Origin: Algisphaera agarilytica
GTDB lineage: Bacteria > Planctomycetota > Phycisphaerae > Phycisphaerales > Phycisphaeraceae
Length of the DNA stretch: 64,000 bases
Assembly: GCF_014207595.1 (NCBI RefSeq)
Contig: NZ_JACHGY010000001.1
Coordinates: 3,478,836 to 3,542,835, forward strand
Reading direction: 5' to 3'
Shown here piece after piece: positions 29,740 through 46,161 of this stretch. A model generated the notes under the pieces. That model had not been told where the DNA came from and made no database searches. It saw only the letters and a program-made list of their open reading frames with translations. Made by a program: the position numbers and the translations under genes. Within the stretch, counting starts at the first letter, position 1. The number at the start of each line of letters is the position of its first letter.

Positions 29740-30636
29740 TTAGCGACGGCGACGCAGGGCCGCAGCACCCACCAGCAGGAGCAGTCCCGTGGCGGGCTCG
29801 GGAATGGCCTGGAGGCCATCGACGTCGAAGAAGCCGTAGTTGTTGCGGACGACCTGCCAGCCCTGGTTAACGGTCGGGCCTGCCACCCCGTGTTCGAGGA
29901 AGCCGGCTTCCGGGCCGTTCTCGATGTAGTCGGGGTTGATGTTGTTGAACGGGTGGAACCAGATGCCGATCATCTGGGCGAAGCCGATGCCCTGCCAGGT
30001 GAGGGGCTGGTTGTCCATCACGTCGAACGGAGATTGCAGCGGGGTGTGGTTGTTGATGTCGGTCGCATCGAGCTCGATACGCATCAGGCGTTTTTTCTTG
30101 CCGGCGTCATCGAAGTCGTTGAGGGTTGAGTTGAAAGCGAAGCCGTTGATCGAGGAAACTATCTGATCGGGTGCCGCGGGCGTGGGGCTCTGCACATCAC
30201 GGAAGTCGGAGGTGCGGTGAGCGCTGGCGGAGCTGCCGCCGTTGTAGGCGTACGCGGTCAGGGTGGGGGTGCCCGTTGCACCGTTGGTTTCGATCAGCTC
30301 TTCCGCTTCGAAGTAAAGCACCGCCAGGTTGCCCAGGTGGGTCTTGGGCATCGGTCCGTCGTTGACCACGAGCGTGAAGCCGGTGGGCAGATCCGAAACA
30401 GAGTCACCCGAGTAAACGGCTTCCCAAACGAACTGGTTGTTGCTGTCATCAAACGAGGTGTAGATCGATTCGATGATCGCGGTCGTTTCAGAGATGGCGG
30501 GGGTGCCAACGCTGTTGTTGATGTATTCGAACACGGTGGCTTCGGCAGACTGGAAGCCGAGGCACACAGCAAGACCGGCGGCCATTGCGGCACGCTTTCG
30601 AAGGTTTAAACAGATGCTTGAGCGAAACAAATTCAT
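29740..30636 (-). CDS. PEP-CTERM sorting-domain protein, secreted
   Basis: 298 residues. The signal region (NLRKRAAMAAGLAVCLGFQS, cleaved near AEA) is followed by a beta-rich body (YINNSVGTPAISETTAIIES, FTLVVNDGPMPKTHLGN, IDATDINNH-like segments). The C-terminus is IPEPATGLLLLVGAAAL and a tail of four arginines, a PEP-CTERM signal. GGAG lies 9 nt before the ATG at 30636; a start seven codons upstream (30657) is weaker. No enzymatic motif seen. Confidence 0.87.
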   Translation of the reverse strand: MNLFRSSICLNLRKRAAMAAGLAVCLGFQSAEATVFEYINNSVGTPAISETTAIIESIYTSFDDSNNQFVWEAVYSGDSVSDLPTGFTLVVNDGPMPKTHLGNLAVLYFEAEELIETNGATGTPTLTAYAYNGGSSASAHRTSDFRDVQSPTPAAPDQIVSSINGFAFNSTLNDFDDAGKKKRLMRIELDATDINNHTPLQSPFDVMDNQPLTWQGIGFAQMIGIWFHPFNNINPDYIENGPEAGFLEHGVAGPTVNQGWQVVRNNYGFFDVDGLQAIPEPATGLLLLVGAAALRRRR

Positions 30637-31066
30637 TGACAGATTCTCCATCCCCAATGCGCTAGACGAGGCTCGAACTACGGAATTAAATAATTCAGAT
30701 GATAAATGGCGTTGCTTAGATTGCTTTCAATGGCCTCAGAATTGAAACAAACTCATATCCCCAGATGGAGCTGACCCCGCTCCAAAGGATCGATACCCAG
30801 ACGCACCCAGCAGGCATTCTGCTAAGTGGGCAATGTGGCTCGACTTGAAACGAGCGTTATCGCCAAATCTAAGTCTATCACCTAATTGGTTTTTGTCTAG
30901 AATCAAAATAAACATTAAATATATCATAAAAATATGTAAATATTACATTTAAAAAATTGTTGACAAAAATAAACCCCAATCCGGACATAATTCAGGGTAG
31001 ACCTGAGGTCCTTGTGGGCAAGGCGGTTAGACTCACGTCCCCGTTCAGCCAATCGATTGGAAATGG
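30637..31066. other. AT-rich intergenic region between a PEP-CTERM gene and exodeoxyribonuclease III
   Basis: About 430 bp, far more AT-rich than the rest of the window between about 30860 and 30990. It has no convincing gene or structured RNA. It contains TTGACA at 30960-30965 and CATAAT at 30986-30991, 20 nt apart, which is long for a promoter but the best pair before the downstream gene. The decamer ATTGTTGACA at 30956-30965 recurs near the agar cluster. Confidence 0.5.
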
Positions 31067-32622: not shown

Positions 32623-32632
32623 TGTCAACAAT
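32623..32632 (-). promoter_or_regulatory. Candidate GntR operator overlapping the -35 of the agar-cluster promoter
   Basis: TGTCAACAAT on the plus strand (ATTGTTGACA on the minus strand). The identical decamer lies at 45324-45333 and 30956-30965, and ATTGTTAACA lies at 43006-43015. The core TGT-NN-ACA is symmetric, as expected for a dimeric GntR/FadR-type regulator. Confidence 0.4.
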
Positions 32633-32659
32633 TTACAGCATGGGTTTCATTGCTACAAT
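32632..32659 (+). promoter_or_regulatory. Promoter of the agar/anhydrogalactose cluster
   Basis: TTTACA (32632-32637), 16-nt spacer, TACAAT (32654-32659), ending about 65 nt before the GH117 start. The -35 overlaps the candidate operator by one base. Confidence 0.65.
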
Positions 32660-32725
32660 CTGCGCCCTTGGCCGTTGTGCGCCTGGGCATTCTGCCTCCC
32701 TTTTCTTGAAGTGCATCCCCACACC

Positions 32726-33790
32726 ATGACCGAATCTTCAAAGCCCCTGAGCGCCGCTTCGATCCGAGCCTTGAACTACACCCGTGGCCCGGAGTGGTAC
32801 ACCGAATTCAAGGAGATCGACCTCAAAGGCGACTTTGCCTACGAAGAAGGCATCGTCCGCCGCGACCCCAGCGCGGTGCTGAAGGTCGATGGTCTTTATT
32901 ACTGCTGGTACACCCGGGGCGAGGGCGAATCCAACTTCGCCAAGTTCGACTTTGACAACCCCTCAAGCAAGACCTTTCCCTGGGACCTCTGCGAGGTCTG
33001 GTACGCAACCTCGGAAGACGGCATCACCTGGAAGGAAGAAGGTCTCGCGGTCGGCCGCGGTCCGGATGGCGCTTACGACGACCGTTCGATCTTCACCCCC
33101 GAGATCATGGCCCACGACGGCAAGTACTACCTGGTTTATCAGGTGGTGCAATCGCCTTACGTCATGCGGGTGAAGGAGCACATCTCGATGGCTGTCGCCG
33201 ACTCGCCGCGCGGCCCGTGGACCAAGGTGGATGGCCCGATCGTCTCGCCCGCCGACAACGGCGTGTGGAAGGGCGAAGAAGACGATCGCTTTGCGATCAT
33301 CGAGCAGGGCGACTTCGACAGCCACAAGACCCACGACCCTTGCCTTGTTCATTACAAAGACAAGTTCTACCTGTACTACAAAGGCGAGCGTATGGGCGAA
33401 GGCATGACCTTCGGCGGACGCGAGATCAACTGGGGCGTCGCCATCGCCGACAACCCCACCGGCCCGTACGTGAAGTCGCCTTACAACCCAATCACCAACA
33501 GCGGCCACGAGGTCTGTGTCTGGCCGTACAAAGAAGGTATGGCGGCGCTGCTGACCACCGACGGCCCCGAACGCAACACCTTCCAATACGCCGAGGACGG
33601 CATCAACTTCGAGATTATGGCCCACATCAAGGGCGCTCCCCAAGCGCTGGGCCTGTTCCGGGACGTTGAAGACCCCCACGGCCACCCGCTGAACCAGATC
33701 ACCTGGGGCCTTTGCCACCGCTACTACGGGCCCAATCCCCAGTACCAATACATCAAGGGCTTCACCAGCGCGAAGCCGCGTCGGGTCTGA
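32726..33790 (+). CDS. GH117 alpha-1,3-L-neoagarobiose / neoagaro-oligosaccharide hydrolase
   Basis: 354 residues. GH117 enzymes release 3,6-anhydro-L-galactose from the non-reducing end of neoagaro-oligosaccharides. The whole chain follows the family: an N-terminal helical swap segment (SAASIRAL), [20 protein letters not shown] (Asp47), [94 protein letters not shown] and [20 protein letters not shown]. It resembles the Saccharophagus enzyme as I recall it. No signal peptide, so it is cytoplasmic and works on imported oligomers. First gene after the cluster promoter. Confidence 0.93.
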
Positions 33791-33822
33791 ATCCGGCGTA
33801 TTCACCGAACACGGAGCACACC

Positions 33823-34284
33823 ATGTCTGAATCAACACGCAGCGAAGTGATGGAAGCGGTCAACCGCCTGGGCTTCTCCATGGATACCGGCAACTGGGCG
33901 GGTGTGCGTGGATGCCTCGCTGACACGCTCTACACCGACTACACCTCGCTGGTCGGCGGCGATCCCGCCGACGTGGCGGCAGACGATCTGGTGGCGGCCT
34001 GGAAGCAGGCGATCGTTCCGCTCGACGCCATTCAGCACGTCGTGGGCAGCCACATCGTGACGCTCGGCTCGGACGAAGCGGTCTGCACCGCTCAGGTGAT
34101 CTGCACCCACCGTTTCGGTGAGCGCGAGCCCGGCGTCGCGGACCTTTGGTCGGTGGCCGGCCACTACGAATACAAACTTTCGCTGGTCGACGGCGTCTGG
34201 AAGATCCACTCCGCTGTCTTCACTCTCCTCTGGGAGACCGGCGACCGCGGCGTCATGGAGCGTGCCGCCAACGCCGCTTCTTGA
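33823..34284 (+). CDS. SnoaL/NTF2-like protein in the agar cluster
   Basis: 153 residues. An alpha-helical start (RSEVMEAVNRLGFSMDTGNW) then the curved beta-sheet pattern of the NTF2/SnoaL fold (VVGSHIVTLGSDEAVCTAQV, ADLWSVAGHYEYKLSLVDGV, WKIHSAVFTLLW). Such folds include dehydratases, isomerases, hydrolases and mere binding proteins. CGGAG lies 7 nt before the ATG, 32 bp after GH117, so it is co-transcribed. It has no signal peptide and no assigned role in agar sugar metabolism. Confidence 0.85.
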   Translation: MSESTRSEVMEAVNRLGFSMDTGNWAGVRGCLADTLYTDYTSLVGGDPADVAADDLVAAWKQAIVPLDAIQHVVGSHIVTLGSDEAVCTAQVICTHRFGEREPGVADLWSVAGHYEYKLSLVDGVWKIHSAVFTLLWETGDRGVMERAANAAS

Positions 34285-34374
34285 AATCAACCGTTACTGG
34301 CGTGGATCGCTCCGAGCGATCGCGCAAATCAATACGTGAATCACTCCGCTTCACACCCCGCCTGAGATCCCCCC

Positions 34375-36888
<2,514 letters not shown>

Positions 36889-36993
36889 TCTATCATTGAA
36901 GACCCGGCGAATCCTACGCCCGGTCGATAAGGACCCTCCGCTGTTCTGTCGAGTCACAACTTCTTCTTCGCTTCCCCTTCTCAAGGACCGACC

Positions 36994-38460
36994 ATGACGA
37001 CCGCCGCCACACAAGTTGATGCCTACCGCTGCTACATCCACGGCCAATGGGTCGAGTCCGAGACCGGGCAAACCATCGAGGTGAAGAGCCCCGCGACCGG
37101 ACAGGTGTGGGCGACCGTCCCCGCCTGCTCTAAGGCCCAGGCCCAGCAAGCACTGGAGTCGTCGCAGGAAGCCCAGCCCGCGTGGGCGGCGCTACCCGCG
37201 CAAGACCGCGCGGTTCACCTGCTGAACATCGCCAAAGCACTTGAGGCGGAACACGAGCACTTCTCCAAGCTGTTGGTGATGGAGCAAGGCAAGACCCTGC
37301 CCCAGGCCCGCGGCGAGGTCACCGACACCATCCGTTACATCACCTACAACGCCGAGGCCGCCCGCCGCATCCAGGGCGAAATCTTCCCCTCGGACATGGC
37401 CGACGAGTCGCTGTGGATCACCCGCGTGCCGTTCGGCGTGACCGTGGGCCTGTGCGCGTTCAACTACCCGCTCGCGCTCATCGGCCGCAAGCTCGCGCCC
37501 GCGCTGGTCACCGGCAACACCATGGTGCTCAAGCCCCACGACGAAACCCCCGTGACCGCGTCGGAGTTCATGCGTCTCGTTCACGACGCGGGCCTCCCCG
37601 CAGGTGTCGTGAACATGGTGTCTGGCGGCGTTCAGGACGTGGGCAGCACGCTGGTCGAGAGCCCGATCACCAAGCTCGTTTCGGTCACCGGCAGCATCCC
37701 CGCGGGCCGCGCGATCTACGCCGGTGGCGCGAAGAACCTCACCCAGATGACCCTCGAGCTCGGCGGCAAGGCTCCGTTCATCATCCTTGACGATGTGGAC
37801 GATCTTGATGCGATCGTCGATGCCGCCGTCATCGCCCGCTACGCCAACTGTGGTCAGGTCTGCATCTGCAACGAGATGGCCCTGGTCCACGAGAAGATCG
37901 CCGACGAATTCACCGAGAAGTTCATCAAGAAGGCCAAGGAAGTCACCGTCGGCGACCCGATGGACGAGTCGATCGGCATGGGCCCGTACACCACCAAGGG
38001 CGGCATGGACCGCTTCCACGGCATCGTTCAGGAAAGCATCAAGCAAGGTGCCGAACTCGCGCTCGGCGGCGACTACGCCGAGGTCCCCGGCTTCGAGGGC
38101 GGCAACTGGTACCAGCCCACCGTGCTGACCAACGCCACCAAAGACACCGCCGCGGTGGCCCAGGAAGTTTTCGGCCCGGTGCTTCCGATCGTCAAGATCT
38201 CGGGCTACGAAGAAGCCGCGGAGATGGTCAACAGCCGTGACGAAGGTTTGTCGGCCTACCTCTGGACCACGAACCACAAGACCATCATGCACGCCACCCG
38301 CACCCTCGAAGTCGGCACCGTCTTCGTCAACAAGGGCATCTGTGGCTACATCCAGGGCTACCACACCGGCCACAAGCACTCGGGCATCGGCGGCGAAGAC
38401 GGCGTCCACGGCATCGAGGGCTTCCTGCAAAAACGCACCATCTATCTCGGCAACGGCTGA
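36994..38460 (+). CDS. Aldehyde dehydrogenase, probable 3,6-anhydro-L-galactose dehydrogenase
   Basis: 488 residues of the NAD(P)-dependent aldehyde dehydrogenase superfamily. Seen: [108 protein letters not shown] (Glu255), [10 protein letters not shown] (nucleophile Cys290) and [12 protein letters not shown]. In context with GH117 and the cycloisomerase it most likely oxidises 3,6-anhydro-L-galactose to 3,6-anhydro-L-galactonate, the entry step of the pathway. Family is certain, substrate is inferred. Confidence 0.9.
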
Positions 38461-38502
38461 GAAACAACAAGCTAATTACTCCCAATCACACAGGATCTTG
38501 TT

Positions 38503-40959
<2,457 letters not shown>

Positions 40960-40985
40960 ACCCGCCCCCAAATTACGCAAGAACC

Positions 40986-42005
40986 ATGAACACCGCACTG
41001 CTTAACGCCGACAAGACCTTCACCTTGGAATCCAAGGACGCCCAACCCCTCGAAGAAGGGCAGGTCCGCCTCGATGTCGCCTGGTGCGGCATCTGTGGCA
41101 CCGACCTTCACATCTACCGCGGTCACATGGATAAGCGGCTGAACTTCCCCGAAGTCATCGGCCACGAAGCCAGTGCGACCGTCGCCGAGGTTGGCCCCGG
41201 TGTCACGGAATACGCCGTGGGTGATGCCGTTGTGGTTCGGCCGTTGGATGCCTGTGGCGAATGCCCCGCGTGTGAGCGTGGCTTCGGACACGTCTGCAAC
41301 AACCTGAACTTCATCGGCATCGACTCCAGCGGCGCTTTCCAGCAGTCTTGGAACGTGCCCGCGAAGTTGTTGCACCGTCTGCCCGAAGGCATGAACCTCG
41401 AGCTCGCGGCGTTTGTCGAGCCCTTGGCGGTGGCCTGTCACGACGTGCGGATGGCTGGCCTCAAGGCCGACGAGTTCTCGGTGGTGCTGGGCGGCGGTCC
41501 GATCGGTCTGCTGATCGCGATGGCGGCCCGTGCTGTGGGCGCCCGTGTGGCGATTTCCGAGCTCAGTGAATCGCGTCTTGAGTTGGCCCAGAAGCTTGGC
41601 TTTGACACGATCAACGCGGGTTCGGACGACGTCGAAGCCGCGGTCATCGAGAAGAGCGGTGCCGACGGGGCGGATGTGGTGTTTGAGGTATCGGGGGCGG
41701 CCCCGCCGATCCGCCAGATGACCAAGCTGGCCCGCGTGCGTGGCCGGGTGGTGGTCGTGGCGATCGTTCCCGAGCCCACCCCGGTGGACCTGTTTCAGGT
41801 CTTCTGGAAGGAACTGCAGATCATCGGAACCCGCGTATACGAGCCCGAAGACTACGACCGCGCGATCGAGCTGCTGGCCAGCGGAGAGGTTGATCCTTCT
41901 ACCCTGGTGACCGGCCGGTTCGGCCTGTCGCAGATCGGCGAGGCGTTTCAATCGCTAGACACCGACAGCCAGCACATGAAGATCCTGGTCAACTGTCAGG
42001 ACTGA
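40986..42005 (+). CDS. Zinc-dependent MDR alcohol dehydrogenase, candidate 2-keto-3-deoxy-L-galactonate 5-dehydrogenase
   Basis: 339 residues of the medium-chain dehydrogenase family. Catalytic zinc ligands are in WCGICGTDLHIYRG and VIGHEASATVAEVG. The structural zinc lobe is CGECPACERGFGHVC. The Rossmann motif is VVLGGGPIGLLIAMAARAVG. It resembles sorbitol/threonine/galactitol dehydrogenases. Only 26 bp separate it from the GH2 gene and 54 bp from the SDR gene. In the known L-AHG route, C5 of 2-keto-3-deoxy-L-galactonate is oxidised and then re-reduced. This enzyme fits the oxidation, by context only. Confidence 0.87.
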   Translation: MNTALLNADKTFTLESKDAQPLEEGQVRLDVAWCGICGTDLHIYRGHMDKRLNFPEVIGHEASATVAEVGPGVTEYAVGDAVVVRPLDACGECPACERGFGHVCNNLNFIGIDSSGAFQQSWNVPAKLLHRLPEGMNLELAAFVEPLAVACHDVRMAGLKADEFSVVLGGGPIGLLIAMAARAVGARVAISELSESRLELAQKLGFDTINAGSDDVEAAVIEKSGADGADVVFEVSGAAPPIRQMTKLARVRGRVVVVAIVPEPTPVDLFQVFWKELQIIGTRVYEPEDYDRAIELLASGEVDPSTLVTGRFGLSQIGEAFQSLDTDSQHMKILVNCQD

Positions 42006-42059
42006 TCAATTACAAAACAACGCCTCGCCTCGGCCGGGCATAACCAGAAGGATAGAAGT

Positions 42060-42830
42060 ATGGGCGTCTTGGATGCGTTTAAGTTGGATGGAAAGACCGC
42101 GTTGGTGACCGGCTGCAAGCGCGGCATCGGGATGGCGATGGCGGTTGGTTTGGCGGAGGCCGGGGCCGATGTGATTGGTGTTAGCGCTTCGCTCGAAGCC
42201 GAGGGCAGCGATGTCGCCAAGGCGGTCGAGGCGACGGGGCGGAAGTTCACTGCTTATACCTGCGACTTCTCCGACCGCGATTCGCTGTACAAGTTCATCG
42301 AGCAGGTCAAGGCCGACACGCCGCAGATCGACATCCTGGTGAACAACGCCGGGACCATCCTCCGCAAGCCCGCCGCCGAGCACCCGGATGAATACTGGGA
42401 CAAGGTCATCGAGGTGAACCTCTCAGCTCAGTTCGTGCTGACCCGTGAGTTCGGCAAGGACATGGTCGAGCGCGGCTCGGGCAAGGTGATCTTCACCGCC
42501 TCGTTGCTGACCTTCCAGGGCGGCATCACCGTGCCGGGTTATGCGGCGAGCAAGGGCGGCATCGGCCAGCTGACCATGGCGTTTGCCAACGAGTGGGCTG
42601 GCAAGGGCGTGAACGTGAACGCGATCGCCCCGGGCTACATCAGCACCGACAACACCGAAGCCCTGCGCAACGACCCCACCCGCAGCGAGCAGATCCTGGC
42701 GCGCATCCCGGCGGGTCGCTGGGGGCTTGCCGAAGACTTCGCGGGCCCCGCGGTGTTCCTGGCGTCGGAAGCCGCGTCATACATGCACGGCACGACCATG
42801 CTGGTCGATGGCGGCTGGATGGGGCGGTAG
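42060..42830 (+). CDS. KduD-like short-chain dehydrogenase, candidate 2,5-diketo-3-deoxygluconate 5-reductase
   Basis: 256 residues of the classical SDR family. Seen: GKTALVTGCKRGIGMAMAVG (cofactor loop), DILVNNAGTILRKPA, VIEVNLSAQFVLTREFG, VIFTASLLTFQGG, catalytic YAASKGG, and VNAIAPGYISTDNTEALRND, a stretch typical of KduD (2-dehydro-3-deoxy-D-gluconate 5-dehydrogenase). In the direction needed here it would reduce the 2,5-diketo-3-deoxy acid to 2-keto-3-deoxy-D-gluconate, completing inversion at C5. Last gene before the cycloisomerase promoter. The reaction is inferred from family plus context. Confidence 0.9.
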   Translation: MGVLDAFKLDGKTALVTGCKRGIGMAMAVGLAEAGADVIGVSASLEAEGSDVAKAVEATGRKFTAYTCDFSDRDSLYKFIEQVKADTPQIDILVNNAGTILRKPAAEHPDEYWDKVIEVNLSAQFVLTREFGKDMVERGSGKVIFTASLLTFQGGITVPGYAASKGGIGQLTMAFANEWAGKGVNVNAIAPGYISTDNTEALRNDPTRSEQILARIPAGRWGLAEDFAGPAVFLASEAASYMHGTTMLVDGGWMGR

Positions 42831-42979
42831 TCTCCCGACTCGTCTGAATGGTTAGTTCAAACTTTTGGGTAGGCGTTGCAGATGGCCGATGAGGCATGCA
42901 GCCGCCTGCTTTTTCGTGGTTATTTGGACAAAAAACGCGGTCTAAAGTAATTGCACGCGGCGAGTTAGCGCTATTGTCA

Positions 42980-43007
42980 TTGCAATTGCCCAGACACCGC
43001 GTATAAT
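42980..43007 (+). promoter_or_regulatory. Promoter of the cycloisomerase gene
   Basis: TTGCAA (42980-42985), 16-nt spacer, TATAAT (43002-43007). The expected start site is near 43014. Confidence 0.7.
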
Positions 43008-43015
43008 TGTTAACA
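43006..43015 (+). promoter_or_regulatory. Candidate GntR operator at the -10/+1 of the cycloisomerase promoter
   Basis: ATTGTTAACA overlaps the -10 end and the start site and differs by one base from the decamer at 32623 and 45324. A weaker relative, ATTGTTAAAG, lies at 44457-44466 upstream of the GntR gene. Confidence 0.4.
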
Positions 43016-43205
43016 CTTGACTGAACCCACCGGTTCCTCTCGTTTCTGAATAGCGATGGTGCTTAAATAAGTAAACCAAGATTCTTAAGGCGTGACTTTG
43101 CAGAAAAACGGCGCGACACAATCTCCAGCCTCGGTGTCGGTTGAGGCTTCACCGGCATTCCGCGGGGCTTCCTTGGCGCGTCCCGCGATGCCGAAGGCCA
43201 CCGCC

Positions 43206-44324
43206 ATGTCCACATTGATCCGTGATGTTGATGTCCGGAACTACCGCGTTCCGTTGCCGAAAGTGCTCTGTGACGCCAAACACGGAACCCACACGCACTT
43301 TGAGATCGTGACCGTCACCGTACGCCTGGCTGACGGTTCAACCGGGACCGGCTACACCTACACCGGCGGCCGGGGCGGCCAATCCATCGCCACGCTGATC
43401 GAGCTTGACCTCGCGCCCGGCCTCGTCGGTAAAGACGCGGCCGACATCGAAGGCATCTACGACTGGATGGAGTGGCACCTCCACTACGTCGGTCGTGGCG
43501 GCATCGTGGCTTTTGCCACCTCTGCTGTGGACATCGCGCTCTGGGATGCCAAAGCCAAGCGAGAGGGCTTGCCGCTCTGGAAACTGGTCGGCGGTGATTC
43601 CCCCGAGTGCAATGCGTACTACGGCGGCATCGATTTGGCTTATACCCTCGACGAGCTCGTCGACAGCATCAAACAGCGTCTGGACCTCGGGTTCCAAGGT
43701 GTCAAGATCAAGGTCGGCCAACCGACACTGGCTCAGGACCTGGAGCGTGTCGAAGCGATCCGGAATCTCGTCGGCCCCGACATCCGTTTCATGGTAGATG
43801 CGAACTACTCGATGAGTGTCGAGGGTGCGATCGAGGCGGCCAAGGCCTTCCGTGCTTACGACCTGATGTGGTTCGAGGAACCCACACTGCCCGACCTCTA
43901 TCATGCCTACGCCCGGATCGGCCGCGAGAGCGGGATGCCTCTGGCCATGGGTGAGAACCTGCACACCCTGCATGAGTTCGGCTACGCGTTCGAACAAGCC
44001 AACCTGTCCTTCATCCAGCCCGATGCGTCGAACTGTGGCGGCATCACCAGCTGGTTGCGCGTTGCGGAGATGTCGAAGGCTCACGACATCCCCGTCTGCT
44101 CCCACGGCATGCACGAACTGCACGTCAGCCTCGTGGCGAGCCAGCCCCACGGCGGATGGATGGAATGGCACAGCTTCCCGATCGACGAGTATTCGACGCT
44201 GCCGATCACACTGCGGGACGGCAAGGCGGTGGCTTCCGATGAGCCCGGGATCGGCGTGGCGTTTGACTGGAAAAAGTTGAAGCCCTACTTGGCCAGTCAA
44301 AAAGTGATTTCTGAGCCTTCTTGA
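43206..44324 (+). CDS. 3,6-anhydro-L-galactonate cycloisomerase (enolase superfamily)
   Basis: 372 residues. Opens the anhydro ring of 3,6-anhydro-L-galactonate to give 2-keto-3-deoxy-L-galactonate. Close in every block to the Vibrio sp. EJY3 enzyme as I recall it: DAKHGTHTHFEIVTVTVRLA, GYTYTGGRGGQSIATL, WHLHYVGRGGIVAFATSAVD, GVKIKVGQ (Lys167/Lys169), metal ligands Asp198, Glu224 and Glu250 (FMVDANYS, WFEEPTLP, AMGENLHT), and CSHGMHELH with His300. The ATG at 43206 aligns with the family start and has GAAGG 8 nt upstream. A longer in-frame start at GTG 43092 would add 38 low-complexity residues. Confidence 0.93.
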   Translation: MSTLIRDVDVRNYRVPLPKVLCDAKHGTHTHFEIVTVTVRLADGSTGTGYTYTGGRGGQSIATLIELDLAPGLVGKDAADIEGIYDWMEWHLHYVGRGGIVAFATSAVDIALWDAKAKREGLPLWKLVGGDSPECNAYYGGIDLAYTLDELVDSIKQRLDLGFQGVKIKVGQPTLAQDLERVEAIRNLVGPDIRFMVDANYSMSVEGAIEAAKAFRAYDLMWFEEPTLPDLYHAYARIGRESGMPLAMGENLHTLHEFGYAFEQANLSFIQPDASNCGGITSWLRVAEMSKAHDIPVCSHGMHELHVSLVASQPHGGWMEWHSFPIDEYSTLPITLRDGKAVASDEPGIGVAFDWKKLKPYLASQKVISEPS

Positions 44325-44535
44325 TTCCTTTTCGGATCGATTCCGATCGACTTTGGGTTCGATGACCTCTCCGGGAGCTATGCATTTTTACGGATCGTGT
44401 CACTGTCTTTAAGGTTGTGTTTTTCTGTCACATCGGTCAGAATCAAACGCGGTGCGATTGTTAAAGTGCTTTGCTTGTCTTGACTTGGCATTTCGCCTCT
44501 GGTAATGAAATAGCACAAGTCCAACGGTTCTCGGC

Positions 44536-45159
44536 GTGACCGGAATACAGTTTGATAGGATTTTGCAGTTGAAAACGGTTCGAGAACAAGTAACGACCAA
44601 GCTTCGGGATGAATTGGTGGCGGGCCAGTACGAAGGCGGCAAAGTCCTTCGTGAGGCGGAGTTGGCTGCCCGCATGGGCGTCAGCCGCGGCCCGGTCCGC
44701 GACGCCATCCTCCAATTAGCCAACGAGGGCTTCCTGGCTTATCAAGCCAACCGCGGCGTGACCGTGAAGCACCCGCCGAACTCGCGCAACCGTGCGTTCA
44801 TTGTCTCCCTGCGGATCCAGATTGAGGTCTTTGCGATCGAGACGGGGCTCGAGACCATTACCGACGAGGATATGGAGAAGATCGAGCACGCGATGGACGA
44901 TCTGAAGCGTGCGTGCGTCGGCGACGACGCTGCGATGGTCGCCCGCTACGACATGGCCTTCCACGAAGCGATCCTGATGAGCTGTGGCGGAGAAGATTTC
45001 ATCAACGCTTGGCGGCAGCTGTGCGCCAAGATGCTCATGAACTACTCCCGTCTCGACGACTACGCCGAGGTGTTCAACGAGCACGTCCATATCCTGGAGC
45101 ATCTCCGCGAGCGTGACGCCAAGCAGGTCATCCAGGCCATCCGCGACAACATCCAGTAA
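44536..45159 (+). CDS. GntR-family (FadR/FCD-type) transcriptional regulator
   Basis: 207 residues from a GTG start, as no ATG is available. The N-terminal winged helix is VREQVTTKLRDELVAGQYEG, EAELAARMGVSRGPVRDAIL and LANEGFLAYQANRGVTV. The C-terminal all-helical FCD-type ligand domain has RIQIEVFAIETGL, ARYDMAFHEAILMS (the Asp/His metal-ligand region) and EHVHILEHLRERD. FadR-type GntR proteins often repress sugar-acid operons until a pathway acid binds. Being next to the cycloisomerase it is the likely regulator of the agar cluster; candidate sites are ATTGTTRACA. Confidence 0.9.
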   Translation: MTGIQFDRILQLKTVREQVTTKLRDELVAGQYEGGKVLREAELAARMGVSRGPVRDAILQLANEGFLAYQANRGVTVKHPPNSRNRAFIVSLRIQIEVFAIETGLETITDEDMEKIEHAMDDLKRACVGDDAAMVARYDMAFHEAILMSCGGEDFINAWRQLCAKMLMNYSRLDDYAEVFNEHVHILEHLRERDAKQVIQAIRDNIQ

Positions 45160-45323: not shown

Positions 45324-45333
45324 TGTCAACAAT
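45324..45333 (-). promoter_or_regulatory. Candidate GntR operator before the enoyl-CoA hydratase gene
   Basis: TGTCAACAAT on the plus strand, identical to the site at 32623-32632. It begins directly after the stop of the small putative gene and 48 bp before the hydratase ATG. Confidence 0.35.
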
Positions 45334-45381: not shown

Positions 45382-46161
45382 ATGGATCAGATGATTGATG
45401 TGCAGGAAGCGTCGGGCGTGTGCCGGATCACGCTCAACCGCCCCAAAGCCAACGCCTACAACCAGGACTTCCTGGACCTATTTGTGGAAGTCCTTGAGCA
45501 GGTGGATGCCTCCGGCAACGCCCGGGTCGCGGTGATTCAGAGCGCCAGCGAGCGTTTTTTCTGTGCCGGTGCGGACATCGAAGCTTTTGCCAAATCGGAT
45601 GCCGATGGTCAGAAGAAGATCGCGGCGACCGCACGGCGGGTCACCGCCATGATCGAGTCCAGCGACAAGGTTTTCGTGGCGTCCATCAACGGCCACGCGC
45701 TGGGCGGCGGGCTCGAGCTGGCGATGGCGTGTGACATCCGACTCGCATGCGATCGTGATTACCTGCTGGGCCTGCCCGAAGTGAAGTTGGGCCAGATGCC
45801 CGGCAACGGCGGGTCCCAGCGTCTGCCTCGCCTCGTGGGGTTCGCCAAGGGGTTGGAACTGACCATCACGGGTGACAACATCTCCCCGCAGGAGGCCTAT
45901 CGGATCGGGCTGGTGAATCACCTCTATCCGGCGGATGGATTTACCGAACGGGTCGAAGCCTATGTCCAAGCTCTGGCGGGCGGGCCGCCGTTGGCGATCG
46001 CGGCGATCAAGCGGGCGGTCCGGCAGGGCTGGCAGAAATCCCTGGAAGATGGGCTGGCGGTTGAGGCGTCGTGTGGCGAGTCCATCTACGACACCCAGGA
46101 CGCCAAGGAAGGGTTCCAGGCGTTTCTCGACAAGCGGCCGCCGATCTTTACAGGCCAATAG
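45382..46161 (+). CDS. Enoyl-CoA hydratase/isomerase family protein
   Basis: 259 residues of the crotonase fold. Seen: GVCRITLNRPKANAYNQDF, FFCAGADIEAF (oxyanion), INGHALGGGLELAMACDIRL (first catalytic Glu), LGLPEVKLGQMPGNGGSQRL (second catalytic Glu) and EAYRIGLVNHLYP. Both glutamates needed for hydration are present, so true hydratase activity is plausible. The CoA substrate is unknown. It sits after the GntR gene, but no other fatty-acid or CoA genes are nearby. Confidence 0.9.
   Translation: MDQMIDVQEASGVCRITLNRPKANAYNQDFLDLFVEVLEQVDASGNARVAVIQSASERFFCAGADIEAFAKSDADGQKKIAATARRVTAMIESSDKVFVASINGHALGGGLELAMACDIRLACDRDYLLGLPEVKLGQMPGNGGSQRLPRLVGFAKGLELTITGDNISPQEAYRIGLVNHLYPADGFTERVEAYVQALAGGPPLAIAAIKRAVRQGWQKSLEDGLAVEASCGESIYDTQDAKEGFQAFLDKRPPIFTGQ

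What the first reader, a model, noticed from the sequence alone, without database searches (positions are those of the whole stretch)
32623..45159. Compact cluster covering terminal agar-oligomer breakdown and the anhydro-L-galactose pathway up to KDG
GH117, a GH2 beta-galactosidase, an aldehyde dehydrogenase, a Zn dehydrogenase, a KduD-like SDR, an enolase-superfamily cycloisomerase and a GntR regulator lie together on one strand. Seen: family motifs in each gene. Known: AHG dehydrogenase and anhydrogalactonate cycloisomerase are established in Vibrio sp. EJY3, and inversion at C5 leads to KDG. Inference: the MDR and SDR genes are the two-step oxidation/reduction at C5. The arrangement, with an SDR-MDR pair between glycosidases and the cycloisomerase, looks like a planctomycete version of the pathway that I have not seen described.
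Basis: partly seen in the sequence, partly recalled or inferred. Interest (0 to 1): 0.75.

Follow-up and report, generated by a model that had tools for sequence, protein, structure and literature searches.

The report
Agar-sugar gene cluster with predicted regulon
A marine-type bacterium, probably a planctomycete, carries the known pathway for eating anhydro-galactose, the odd sugar of red-algal agar, in a slightly altered form, and a shared DNA sign near its genes suggests that one switch protein controls them together with agar-cutting enzymes elsewhere on the chromosome.

Summary
One strand (32726-45159) carries GH117, an agarolytic-type GH2 beta-galactosidase, ALDH, MDR, KduD-like SDR, anhydrogalactonate cycloisomerase (ACI) and GntR.

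The pathway reading is well supported but not new: MDR+SDR inversion at C5 is published, and Aquimarina ERC-38 has GH2-GH117-MDR-SDR-ALDH-ACI in a row (PMC10163077). MDR+SDR lie within 6 kb of ACI in 45 of 80 loci.

What differs: the cluster ALDH is outside the clade of the usual AHG dehydrogenase, and a gene of that clade sits 440 kb away; a relative, G356, has only the cluster type. A GH2 subfamily with an altered acid/base motif lies in 7 of 80 loci.

The newest result is a motif, ATTGTTRACA, beside the cluster's transcription units and before GH16, GH86 and GH117-like genes elsewhere. In G356, 5 of 10 genome-wide TTGTTRACA sites lie in 12.3 kb at its cluster, and another overlaps the start of a KDPG aldolase gene followed by a kinase. 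I read this as a GntR agar regulon; binding is untested.

The parts
32623..32632 (-). operator-like motif ATTGTTGACA, 93 bp before the GH117 ATG; its last base is the first of a promoter-like -35 (32632-32659)
32726..33790 (+). GH117 alpha-1,3-(3,6-anhydro)-L-galactosidase, no signal peptide evident by eye
   Evidence: PDB 3r4y, 5ta7, 3p2n E < 1e-140; pairs with G356 100/100
33823..34284 (+). SnoaL_4-like protein, 153 aa, function unknown
   Evidence: Pfam 62.2 bits; relatives in 0 of 80 ACI loci
34375..36888 (+). GH2 agarolytic-type beta-galactosidase, no signal peptide evident by eye
   Evidence: PDB 5t9a E 4.6e-283
36994..38460 (+). aldehyde dehydrogenase, candidate AHG dehydrogenase of a separate clade
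38503..40959 (+). GH2, beta-mannosidase-like subfamily with GGEE in place of GNNE
   Evidence: in 7 of 80 ACI loci
40986..42005 (+). zinc MDR, predicted 2-keto-3-deoxy-L-galactonate 5-dehydrogenase
42060..42830 (+). KduD-like SDR, predicted 2,5-diketo-3-deoxy-L-galactonate reductase giving KDG
43006..43015 (+). operator-like motif ATTGTTAACA, overlapping a promoter-like TATAAT that ends at 43007
43206..44324 (+). 3,6-anhydro-L-galactonate cycloisomerase (ACI)
   Evidence: PDB 5xd7 E 1.1e-155; active-site motifs kept
44457..44468 (+). weaker motif copy ATTGTTAAAGTG before GntR
44536..45159 (+). GntR/FCD regulator, 64% identical to that of G356
45324..45333 (-). operator-like motif between GntR and a crotonase gene (48 bp before its ATG)
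30956..30965 (+). operator-like motif between a PEP-CTERM-like secreted gene (29740-30657, -; by eye, no Pfam match) and an exonuclease III-like gene (31067, +; by eye)

Best explanation
The cluster is the cytoplasmic end of an agar-utilisation system. GH117 and the GH2 beta-galactosidase cut imported neoagaro-oligosaccharides to D-galactose and L-AHG. An aldehyde dehydrogenase (the cluster ALDH, or the second one at 3.956 Mb, or both) oxidises L-AHG to anhydrogalactonate. ACI opens it to 2-keto-3-deoxy-L-galactonate. The MDR oxidises C5 and the KduD-like SDR reduces it with inversion to KDG, which unlinked kinase and aldolase genes turn into pyruvate and glyceraldehyde-3-phosphate. The GntR/FCD protein is proposed to repress these genes, and agarase genes elsewhere, by binding ATTGTTRACA-type operators, released by a sugar-acid intermediate. 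Shown: gene families, catalytic motifs, conserved neighbourhoods, motif clustering in two genera. Inferred: substrates, import, sign of regulation, inducer.
For: Family and PDB matches. ACI and GH117 active-site motifs. MDR and SDR within 6 kb of ACI in 45 of 80 loci, adjacent to each other in 43 of 80; SDR up to 84% identical. Same steps described for P. hydrolytica and Aquimarina (passages). G356 has GH117, MDR, SDR, ALDH, ACI and GntR within 20 kb and one ALDH match at 1e-60 to the AHGD query, the cluster type. Own genome has 4 KDPG aldolases, a PfkB/KDG-kinase-like gene, GH16 (1o4z E 1.6e-107), GH86 (5ta1 E 4.6e-151), GH50 (4bq2 E 3.3e-93). Motif: 4 of 12 distinct own-genome sites lie in 14.4 kb here; others stand before GH16, GH86 and a GH117-like gene. 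In G356 5 of 10 TTGTTRACA sites (3 of 5 strict) lie in 12.3 kb at its cluster, binomial 8e-11 (3e-7); one more overlaps the predicted start of a KDPG aldolase gene followed by a PfkB kinase.
Against: No expression or enzyme data. The ALDH is not in the usual AHGD clade and a member of that clade exists elsewhere. The motif was defined from three cluster sites; without them 1 of 9 own sites is local (p 0.03). Four of 12 own sites lie inside predicted ORFs or near genes of no evident link. The motif contains TTGACA, was itself scored as a minus-strand promoter at 32628-32601, and exceeds its reversed control also in family genomes without a strong ACI match, e.g. 30 v 10 in G352. Two sites abut or overlap start codons, an unusual place for an operator. 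No hit of 15 bits or more stands before the four own KDPG aldolases or in the GH2/GH16 locus at 1.107 Mb, so part of the own agar genes would lie outside the regulon.
Confidence: 0.82

Rival explanations
1. The cluster ALDH is not the AHG dehydrogenase of this organism; the enzyme of the usual clade at C1:3956250-3957689 does that step and the cluster ALDH oxidises another aldehyde.
For: That gene is 65% identical to a Bacteroidota AHGD-type ALDH; L033 carries both types in one agar locus. A weak motif (15.5 bits, within random expectation) lies about 60 bp before it.
Against: G356 has the pathway with only the cluster-type ALDH, divergent from ACI across a gap with two motif sites. In L070 the cluster type is the only close ALDH of the ACI locus (another there is 28% identical).
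Confidence: 0.27
2. ATTGTTRACA is not the GntR operator but a promoter element (-35 TTGACA) or the site of another regulator.
For: It contains TTGACA; excess over reversed control in family genomes without a strong ACI match, 30 v 10 in G352, 5 v 0 in G111.
Against: Orientation to the genes varies; TTGTTAACAA is a dyad; in the six other family genomes at most two strict sites fall within 15 kb, against 4 here and 3 in G356; the GntR winged-helix region is strongly conserved between the two genomes.
Confidence: 0.22
3. 2-keto-3-deoxy-L-galactonate goes straight to central metabolism as proposed for Vibrio EJY3, and MDR and SDR serve another sugar acid.
For: That fate is proposed for EJY3 (passages).
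Against: MDR and SDR lie within 6 kb of ACI in 45 of 80 loci; the SDR is often 70-84% identical where ACI is 57-66%.
Confidence: 0.07
4. The cluster serves another red-algal galactan (porphyran or carrageenan), not agar.
For: Other galactan-type loci with sulfatase-like genes (by eye) exist in the genome.
Against: GH117 and the first GH2 are closest to agar enzymes and the best PDB match of ACI is the L-form enzyme; the motif stands before a GH16 and a GH86 whose best PDB matches are beta-agarases or agar-PUL enzymes.
Confidence: 0.05

Closest known systems
L-AHG pathway of Pseudoalteromonas atlantica / Paraglaciecola hydrolytica S66 (PMC5943477, passages)
   Same: AHG, AHGA, L-KDGal, L-DDGal, KDG, KDPG; dehydrogenase plus reductase at C5
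   Different: here: GntR/FCD regulator, second GH2 and SnoaL gene in the cluster, no transporter, agarases unlinked
Aquimarina sp. ERC-38 PUL-a (PMC10163077, passages with part of Table 2)
   Same: GH2, GH117, MDR, SDR, ALDH, ACI under consecutive locus tags
   Different: Bacteroidota-type PUL; its ALDH is 69.3% identical to 6J75, while the one here scores higher with 3k2w (473 bits) than with 6j75 (426); agarases in the same PUL
Streptomyces coelicolor SCO3471-SCO3487 (PMC9706016, passages)
   Same: clustered GH117, ALDH, ACI; a divergent AHG dehydrogenase shown active
   Different: agarases in the cluster; MDR/SDR and the regulator not discussed in the passages seen
GntR/FCD sugar-acid repressors such as DgoR, UxuR (recalled)
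   Same: winged helix plus FCD domain; short dyad operators (recalled)
   Different: no NCBIfam model reached its cut-off (best phnR_burk 89.1 of 271.5 bits); predicted targets are agar genes

Membership tests
L-AHG catabolic pathway, C5-inversion branch | 3,6-anhydro-L-galactonate cycloisomerase | tested here: met
   5xd7 E 1.1e-155. Of eight active-site residues listed for SCO3480, seven fall by a +2 offset on K166, K168, D197, E223, E249, D272, H299; the eighth was not placed
L-AHG catabolic pathway, C5-inversion branch | MDR 5-dehydrogenase and KduD-like reductase together with ACI | tested here: met
   45 of 80 ACI loci share the pair within 6 kb; zinc and Rossmann motifs
L-AHG catabolic pathway, C5-inversion branch | KDG kinase and KDPG aldolase in the genome | tested here: met
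   4 aldolases over cut-off; kinase by PfkB and models below their cut-offs, so its substrate is inferred
Canonical AHG dehydrogenase (Bacteroidota clade, 6j75 type) | ALDH grouping with the ACI-linked Bacteroidota clade | tested here: not met
   cluster ALDH falls in a separate clade of 5 rows (4 distinct genes), 100/100; 3k2w 473 bits, 6j75 426. 6j75 itself was not in the tree
Canonical AHG dehydrogenase (Bacteroidota clade, 6j75 type) | activity on L-AHG | not testable with these tools
   needs assay
KduD equivalog (TIGR01832) | score over the curated cut-off | tested here: not met
   329.6 against 338.85 bits: KduD-like, not filed as KduD
GH117 neoagarobiose hydrolase | full-length match to solved enzymes and conserved YDDRS/SGHEV regions | tested here: met
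GH2 beta-mannosidase | Asn-Glu acid/base pair | tested here: not met
   GGEE where 9nfe has GNNE (5n6u reads GNNC); GGEE (4) or GSEE (2) in the 6 of 7 relatives that cover the site
GntR-controlled agar regulon | shared motif clustered at the AHG genes of two genera and before scattered agar genes | tested here: met
GntR-controlled agar regulon | physical binding and derepression by an inducer | not testable with these tools
   needs EMSA and RNA-seq

The most novel reading that the evidence does not exclude
In this family (probably Phycisphaeraceae) a single GntR/FCD repressor, encoded in the AHG cluster and sensing a sugar-acid intermediate, controls a chromosome-wide agar regulon through ATTGTTRACA operators: GH16 and GH86 agarases, more than one GH117-type gene, the AHG pathway and, in G356, an MFS sugar transporter and KDPG aldolase-kinase. 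Within the cluster sits an uncharacterised GH2 subfamily, shared with Bacteroidota agar loci, whose conserved Asn next to the acid/base is replaced by Glu, implying an unusual sugar at its -1 subsite.
Probability: 0.6. Interest if true: 0.5.

Novelty: new variant of a known kind. Interest (0 to 1): 0.4.

Why it matters
In the passages I saw, the L-AHG route is worked out in Bacteroidota, Pseudomonadota and Streptomyces. Here a complete version is traced in another lineage, with a different candidate AHG dehydrogenase and a testable regulator and operator. If the regulon holds, it gives a way to find agar genes that are dispersed over a chromosome, and it points to an unassigned GH2 subfamily in agar loci.

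Tried and rejected
Rejected: novelty of the SDR-MDR arrangement. Rejected: chance neighbours. Not supported: a general role of the SnoaL gene, since no relative was found in 80 ACI loci and none at 1e-12 in G356; its other relatives in the phylum sample were fetched (L100-L102) but their neighbours were not analysed beyond a search with the cluster proteins. Rfam gave only a tRNA at gathering scores. Promoter and terminator scans were at shuffle level (3 found v mean 2.5; 11 v 11.0), so only positions, not counts, are used. Agarase_CBM (PF17992) found nothing, but its controls did not ring either; a GH50 agarase-type gene is present all the same. A first ACI alignment used the wrong strand of L009 and was redone. 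An empty-site test of the insertion was considered and not done. Structure prediction and fold search were not used. In one search four relaxed forms of the motif were tried on L097; TTGTTRACA was carried on, and the strict form is reported beside it. Literature searches for a regulator or operator of agar genes (listings, plus passages of PMC3124978, whose GntR is placed with alginate) showed none; this covers only the held open library.
Full report
WHAT IS THERE. The window lies at C1:3478836-3542835 of a 4.17 Mb genome. Nine + strand genes run from 32726 to 45159: GH117, SnoaL_4, GH2 (beta-galactosidase), ALDH, second GH2, MDR, SDR, ACI, GntR/FCD. None of the glycosidases shows an evident signal peptide (by eye), so import and cytoplasmic hydrolysis are inferred. 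Flanking genes (exonuclease III-like, crotonase, CoaD-like, ilvD-like) look like housekeeping genes (by eye except the crotonase).

ORGANISM.

ENZYMES. ACI matches the solved L-form cycloisomerase 5xd7 at E 1.1e-155; seven of the eight active-site residues listed for SCO3480 (passage) fall, by a constant offset of two, on K166, K168, D197, E223, E249, D272 and H299; the eighth was not placed. GH117 matches six distinct PDB sequences at E below 1e-138, four of them named anhydro-alpha-L-galactosidase. The first GH2 matches 5t9a at 4.6e-283, which is also the closest characterised relative of the beta-galactosidase in the Aquimarina agar PUL (passage). The SDR reaches 329.6 bits with kduD, just under the cut-off of 338.85, so it is KduD-like only.

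PATHWAY. MDR (at least 45% identity) and SDR (at least 65%) both lie within 6 kb of ACI in 45 of 80; MDR and SDR are adjacent in 43 of 80; a close GH117 lies within the flank in 25 of 80; 24 of 80 have MDR and SDR without a close GH117, many of them alphaproteobacteria by title. This supports the two-step C5 inversion, which is already in print (EC 1.1.1.389 and 1.1.1.127; passages). In Aquimarina ERC-38 GH2, GH117, MDR, SDR, ALDH and ACI have consecutive locus tags. So 'not described' does not stand for the arrangement. I saw no paper on AHG catabolism in Phycisphaerae among the listings; PMC4807772 (passages) reports two GH16 beta-agarase genes and a beta-porphyranase gene in P. mikurensis.

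WHAT IS DIFFERENT. (a) ACI at E 1e-100 or better is rare in the phylum sample: 4 of 392 genomes, own included. G356 has GH117, MDR, SDR, ALDH, ACI and GntR within 20 kb in another order, beside a pyruvate-kinase-like gene (by eye). GH117, MDR and ALDH of the window pair with G356; the SDR instead groups, with moderate support (91/79), with a Bacteroidota row. No ACI tree was made. (b) ALDH tree of 45 rows: window, G356 (entered twice, as L009 and L097), L033 and L070 form one clade (100/100) apart from the other ACI-linked ALDHs of Bacteroidota and alphaproteobacteria. The own genome also has a gene 65% identical to a Bacteroidota-type one at C1:3956286; G356 has a single match at 1e-60, its cluster ALDH, 46%. 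The cluster ALDH is therefore probably an AHG dehydrogenase of another lineage, but in the window's own organism the step may be shared or done by the other enzyme. (c) The second GH2 is closest to beta-mannosidases (5n6u E 2.8e-47) but reads GGEE where 9nfe reads GNNE and 5n6u GNNC. Relatives at 37-42% lie in 7 of 80 loci, all Bacteroidota; six cover the acid/base site (GGEE in four, GSEE in two) and five cover the nucleophile site (PEL in four, PEF in one). That this Asn contacts the 2-OH at subsite -1 in clan GH-A is recalled. In 382 phylum genomes only own and one other (33%) match at 1e-90.

REGULON. Comparing intergenic DNA of the cluster showed ATTGTTRACA at 32623(-), 43006(+) and 45324(-), and a weaker ATTGTTAAAG at 44457 before GntR; 30956 came with the window scan (7 matches with up to one mismatch v mean 2.11, 0 of 100 shuffles with 7). 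At GH117 it touches a promoter-like -35, at ACI it overlaps a TATAAT; its own TTGACA was also scored as a minus-strand promoter. The own genome has 14 strict hits, 12 distinct sites, against 1 for the reversed control. Besides the four here: C1:1040797, 19 bp before a GH86 gene; C1:1254244, abutting the start codon of an AgaB-like GH16; C1:4018315, 67 bp before a GH117-like gene; C1:3943098, 43 bp before a 244-aa secreted-looking protein without Pfam match that faces a GH50 gene; C1:1570909, 210 bp before a secreted-looking ORF; C1:564231, near a Mur-ligase-like gene; C1:1831147 and C1:2037890 inside predicted ORFs. The chance of 4 of 12 in 14.4 kb is 7e-8, but three of these defined the motif; without them it is 1 of 9, p 0.03.

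TEST IN A SECOND GENOME. G356 (GC 71% at the locus) was not used to define the motif. TTGTTRACA has 11 hits, 10 distinct sites, in its genome (reversed control 2); 5 lie in 12.3 kb at the cluster (binomial 8e-11; Markov mean for the 20 kb locus 0.02, maximum 1 in 300 runs). They lie 52 bp or so before GH117, two in the divergent ACI/ALDH gap, about 120 bp before an MFS_2 sugar transporter, and at the start of a pilin-like ORF. Strict ATTGTTRACA has 5 distinct sites: 3 at the cluster, one overlapping the predicted start codon of a KDPG aldolase followed by a PfkB kinase, one before a PEP-CTERM protein. The remaining relaxed sites of G356 (C1:1121361, 1244273, 2268211) have no evident agar link. 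In six other family genomes, none of which matched ACI at 1e-100, strict counts v reversed control were 5/0, 4/3, 3/1, 0/0, 4/1 and 30/10, and none has three sites within 15 kb. So the mere genome-wide excess is not specific; the clustering is. Whether those genomes hold a like GntR was not tested. A weight matrix gave two further own candidates, before a GH117-like gene (19.2 bits) and before the second ALDH (15.5 bits); random sequence of the same 193 kb gave 0-3 hits at 15 or more and 0-1 at 18 or more in 6 runs, so the second is within chance. No hit of 15 bits stood before the four own KDPG aldolases or in the GH2/GH16 locus at 1.107 Mb.

MECHANISM. A GntR/FCD dimer binding a TTGTYRACAA-like dyad over promoter elements fits a repressor; FCD domains commonly bind carboxylates (recalled), so AHGA, L-KDGal or KDG are candidate inducers. 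The sign of regulation and the inducer are inference.

VERDICT. A real and well-supported instance of a known pathway, with a lineage-specific ALDH, an unassigned GH2 subfamily and a predicted regulon as the new parts. On checking, corrected facts (distance to GH86, counts of GH2 relatives, overlap of a site with a start codon, organism by recall) did not require changed odds.

Noticed in passing
e.g. L021 10001-12900 and other alphaproteobacterial loci: ACI, MDR and SDR without a close GH117 in the flank in 24 of 80 loci, many in alphaproteobacteria: possible scavengers of free AHG released by agar degraders.
   Followed up: partly
L124 4188-11397 (C1:1369188-1376397): Three GH117-like genes (37-40% identity) beside a KDPG aldolase and an alpha-L-fucosidase-family gene; one has a motif-like site (19.2 bits) about 75 bp upstream.
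   Followed up: partly
L122-L123 (C1:1105131-1131400): Another galactan-type locus: GH2 50% identical to the cluster GH2, three GH16s, sulfatase-like genes (by eye), an ACI-like enolase (26%), PfkB kinase, KDPG aldolase, ALDH (31%).
   Followed up: partly
window 29740-30657; L137 5159-5887: Secreted PEP-CTERM-type proteins (the first by eye, the second by Pfam) next to the motif in both genomes; role unknown.
   Followed up: no
window 45382-46161: Crotonase gene 48 bp after a strict motif site; no evident link to agar.
   Followed up: no
L120 17633 to L121 1646 (C1:3967633-3971646): A parallel set of GH43/GH117-like, MDR, ACI-like and SDR genes (25-35% identity), possibly for another anhydro or deoxy sugar.
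   Followed up: no
L022, L043, L076, L033: Aldose-epimerase-like and multi-membrane transporter-like ORFs recur in Bacteroidota agar loci that hold the second GH2 type (by eye).
   Followed up: no
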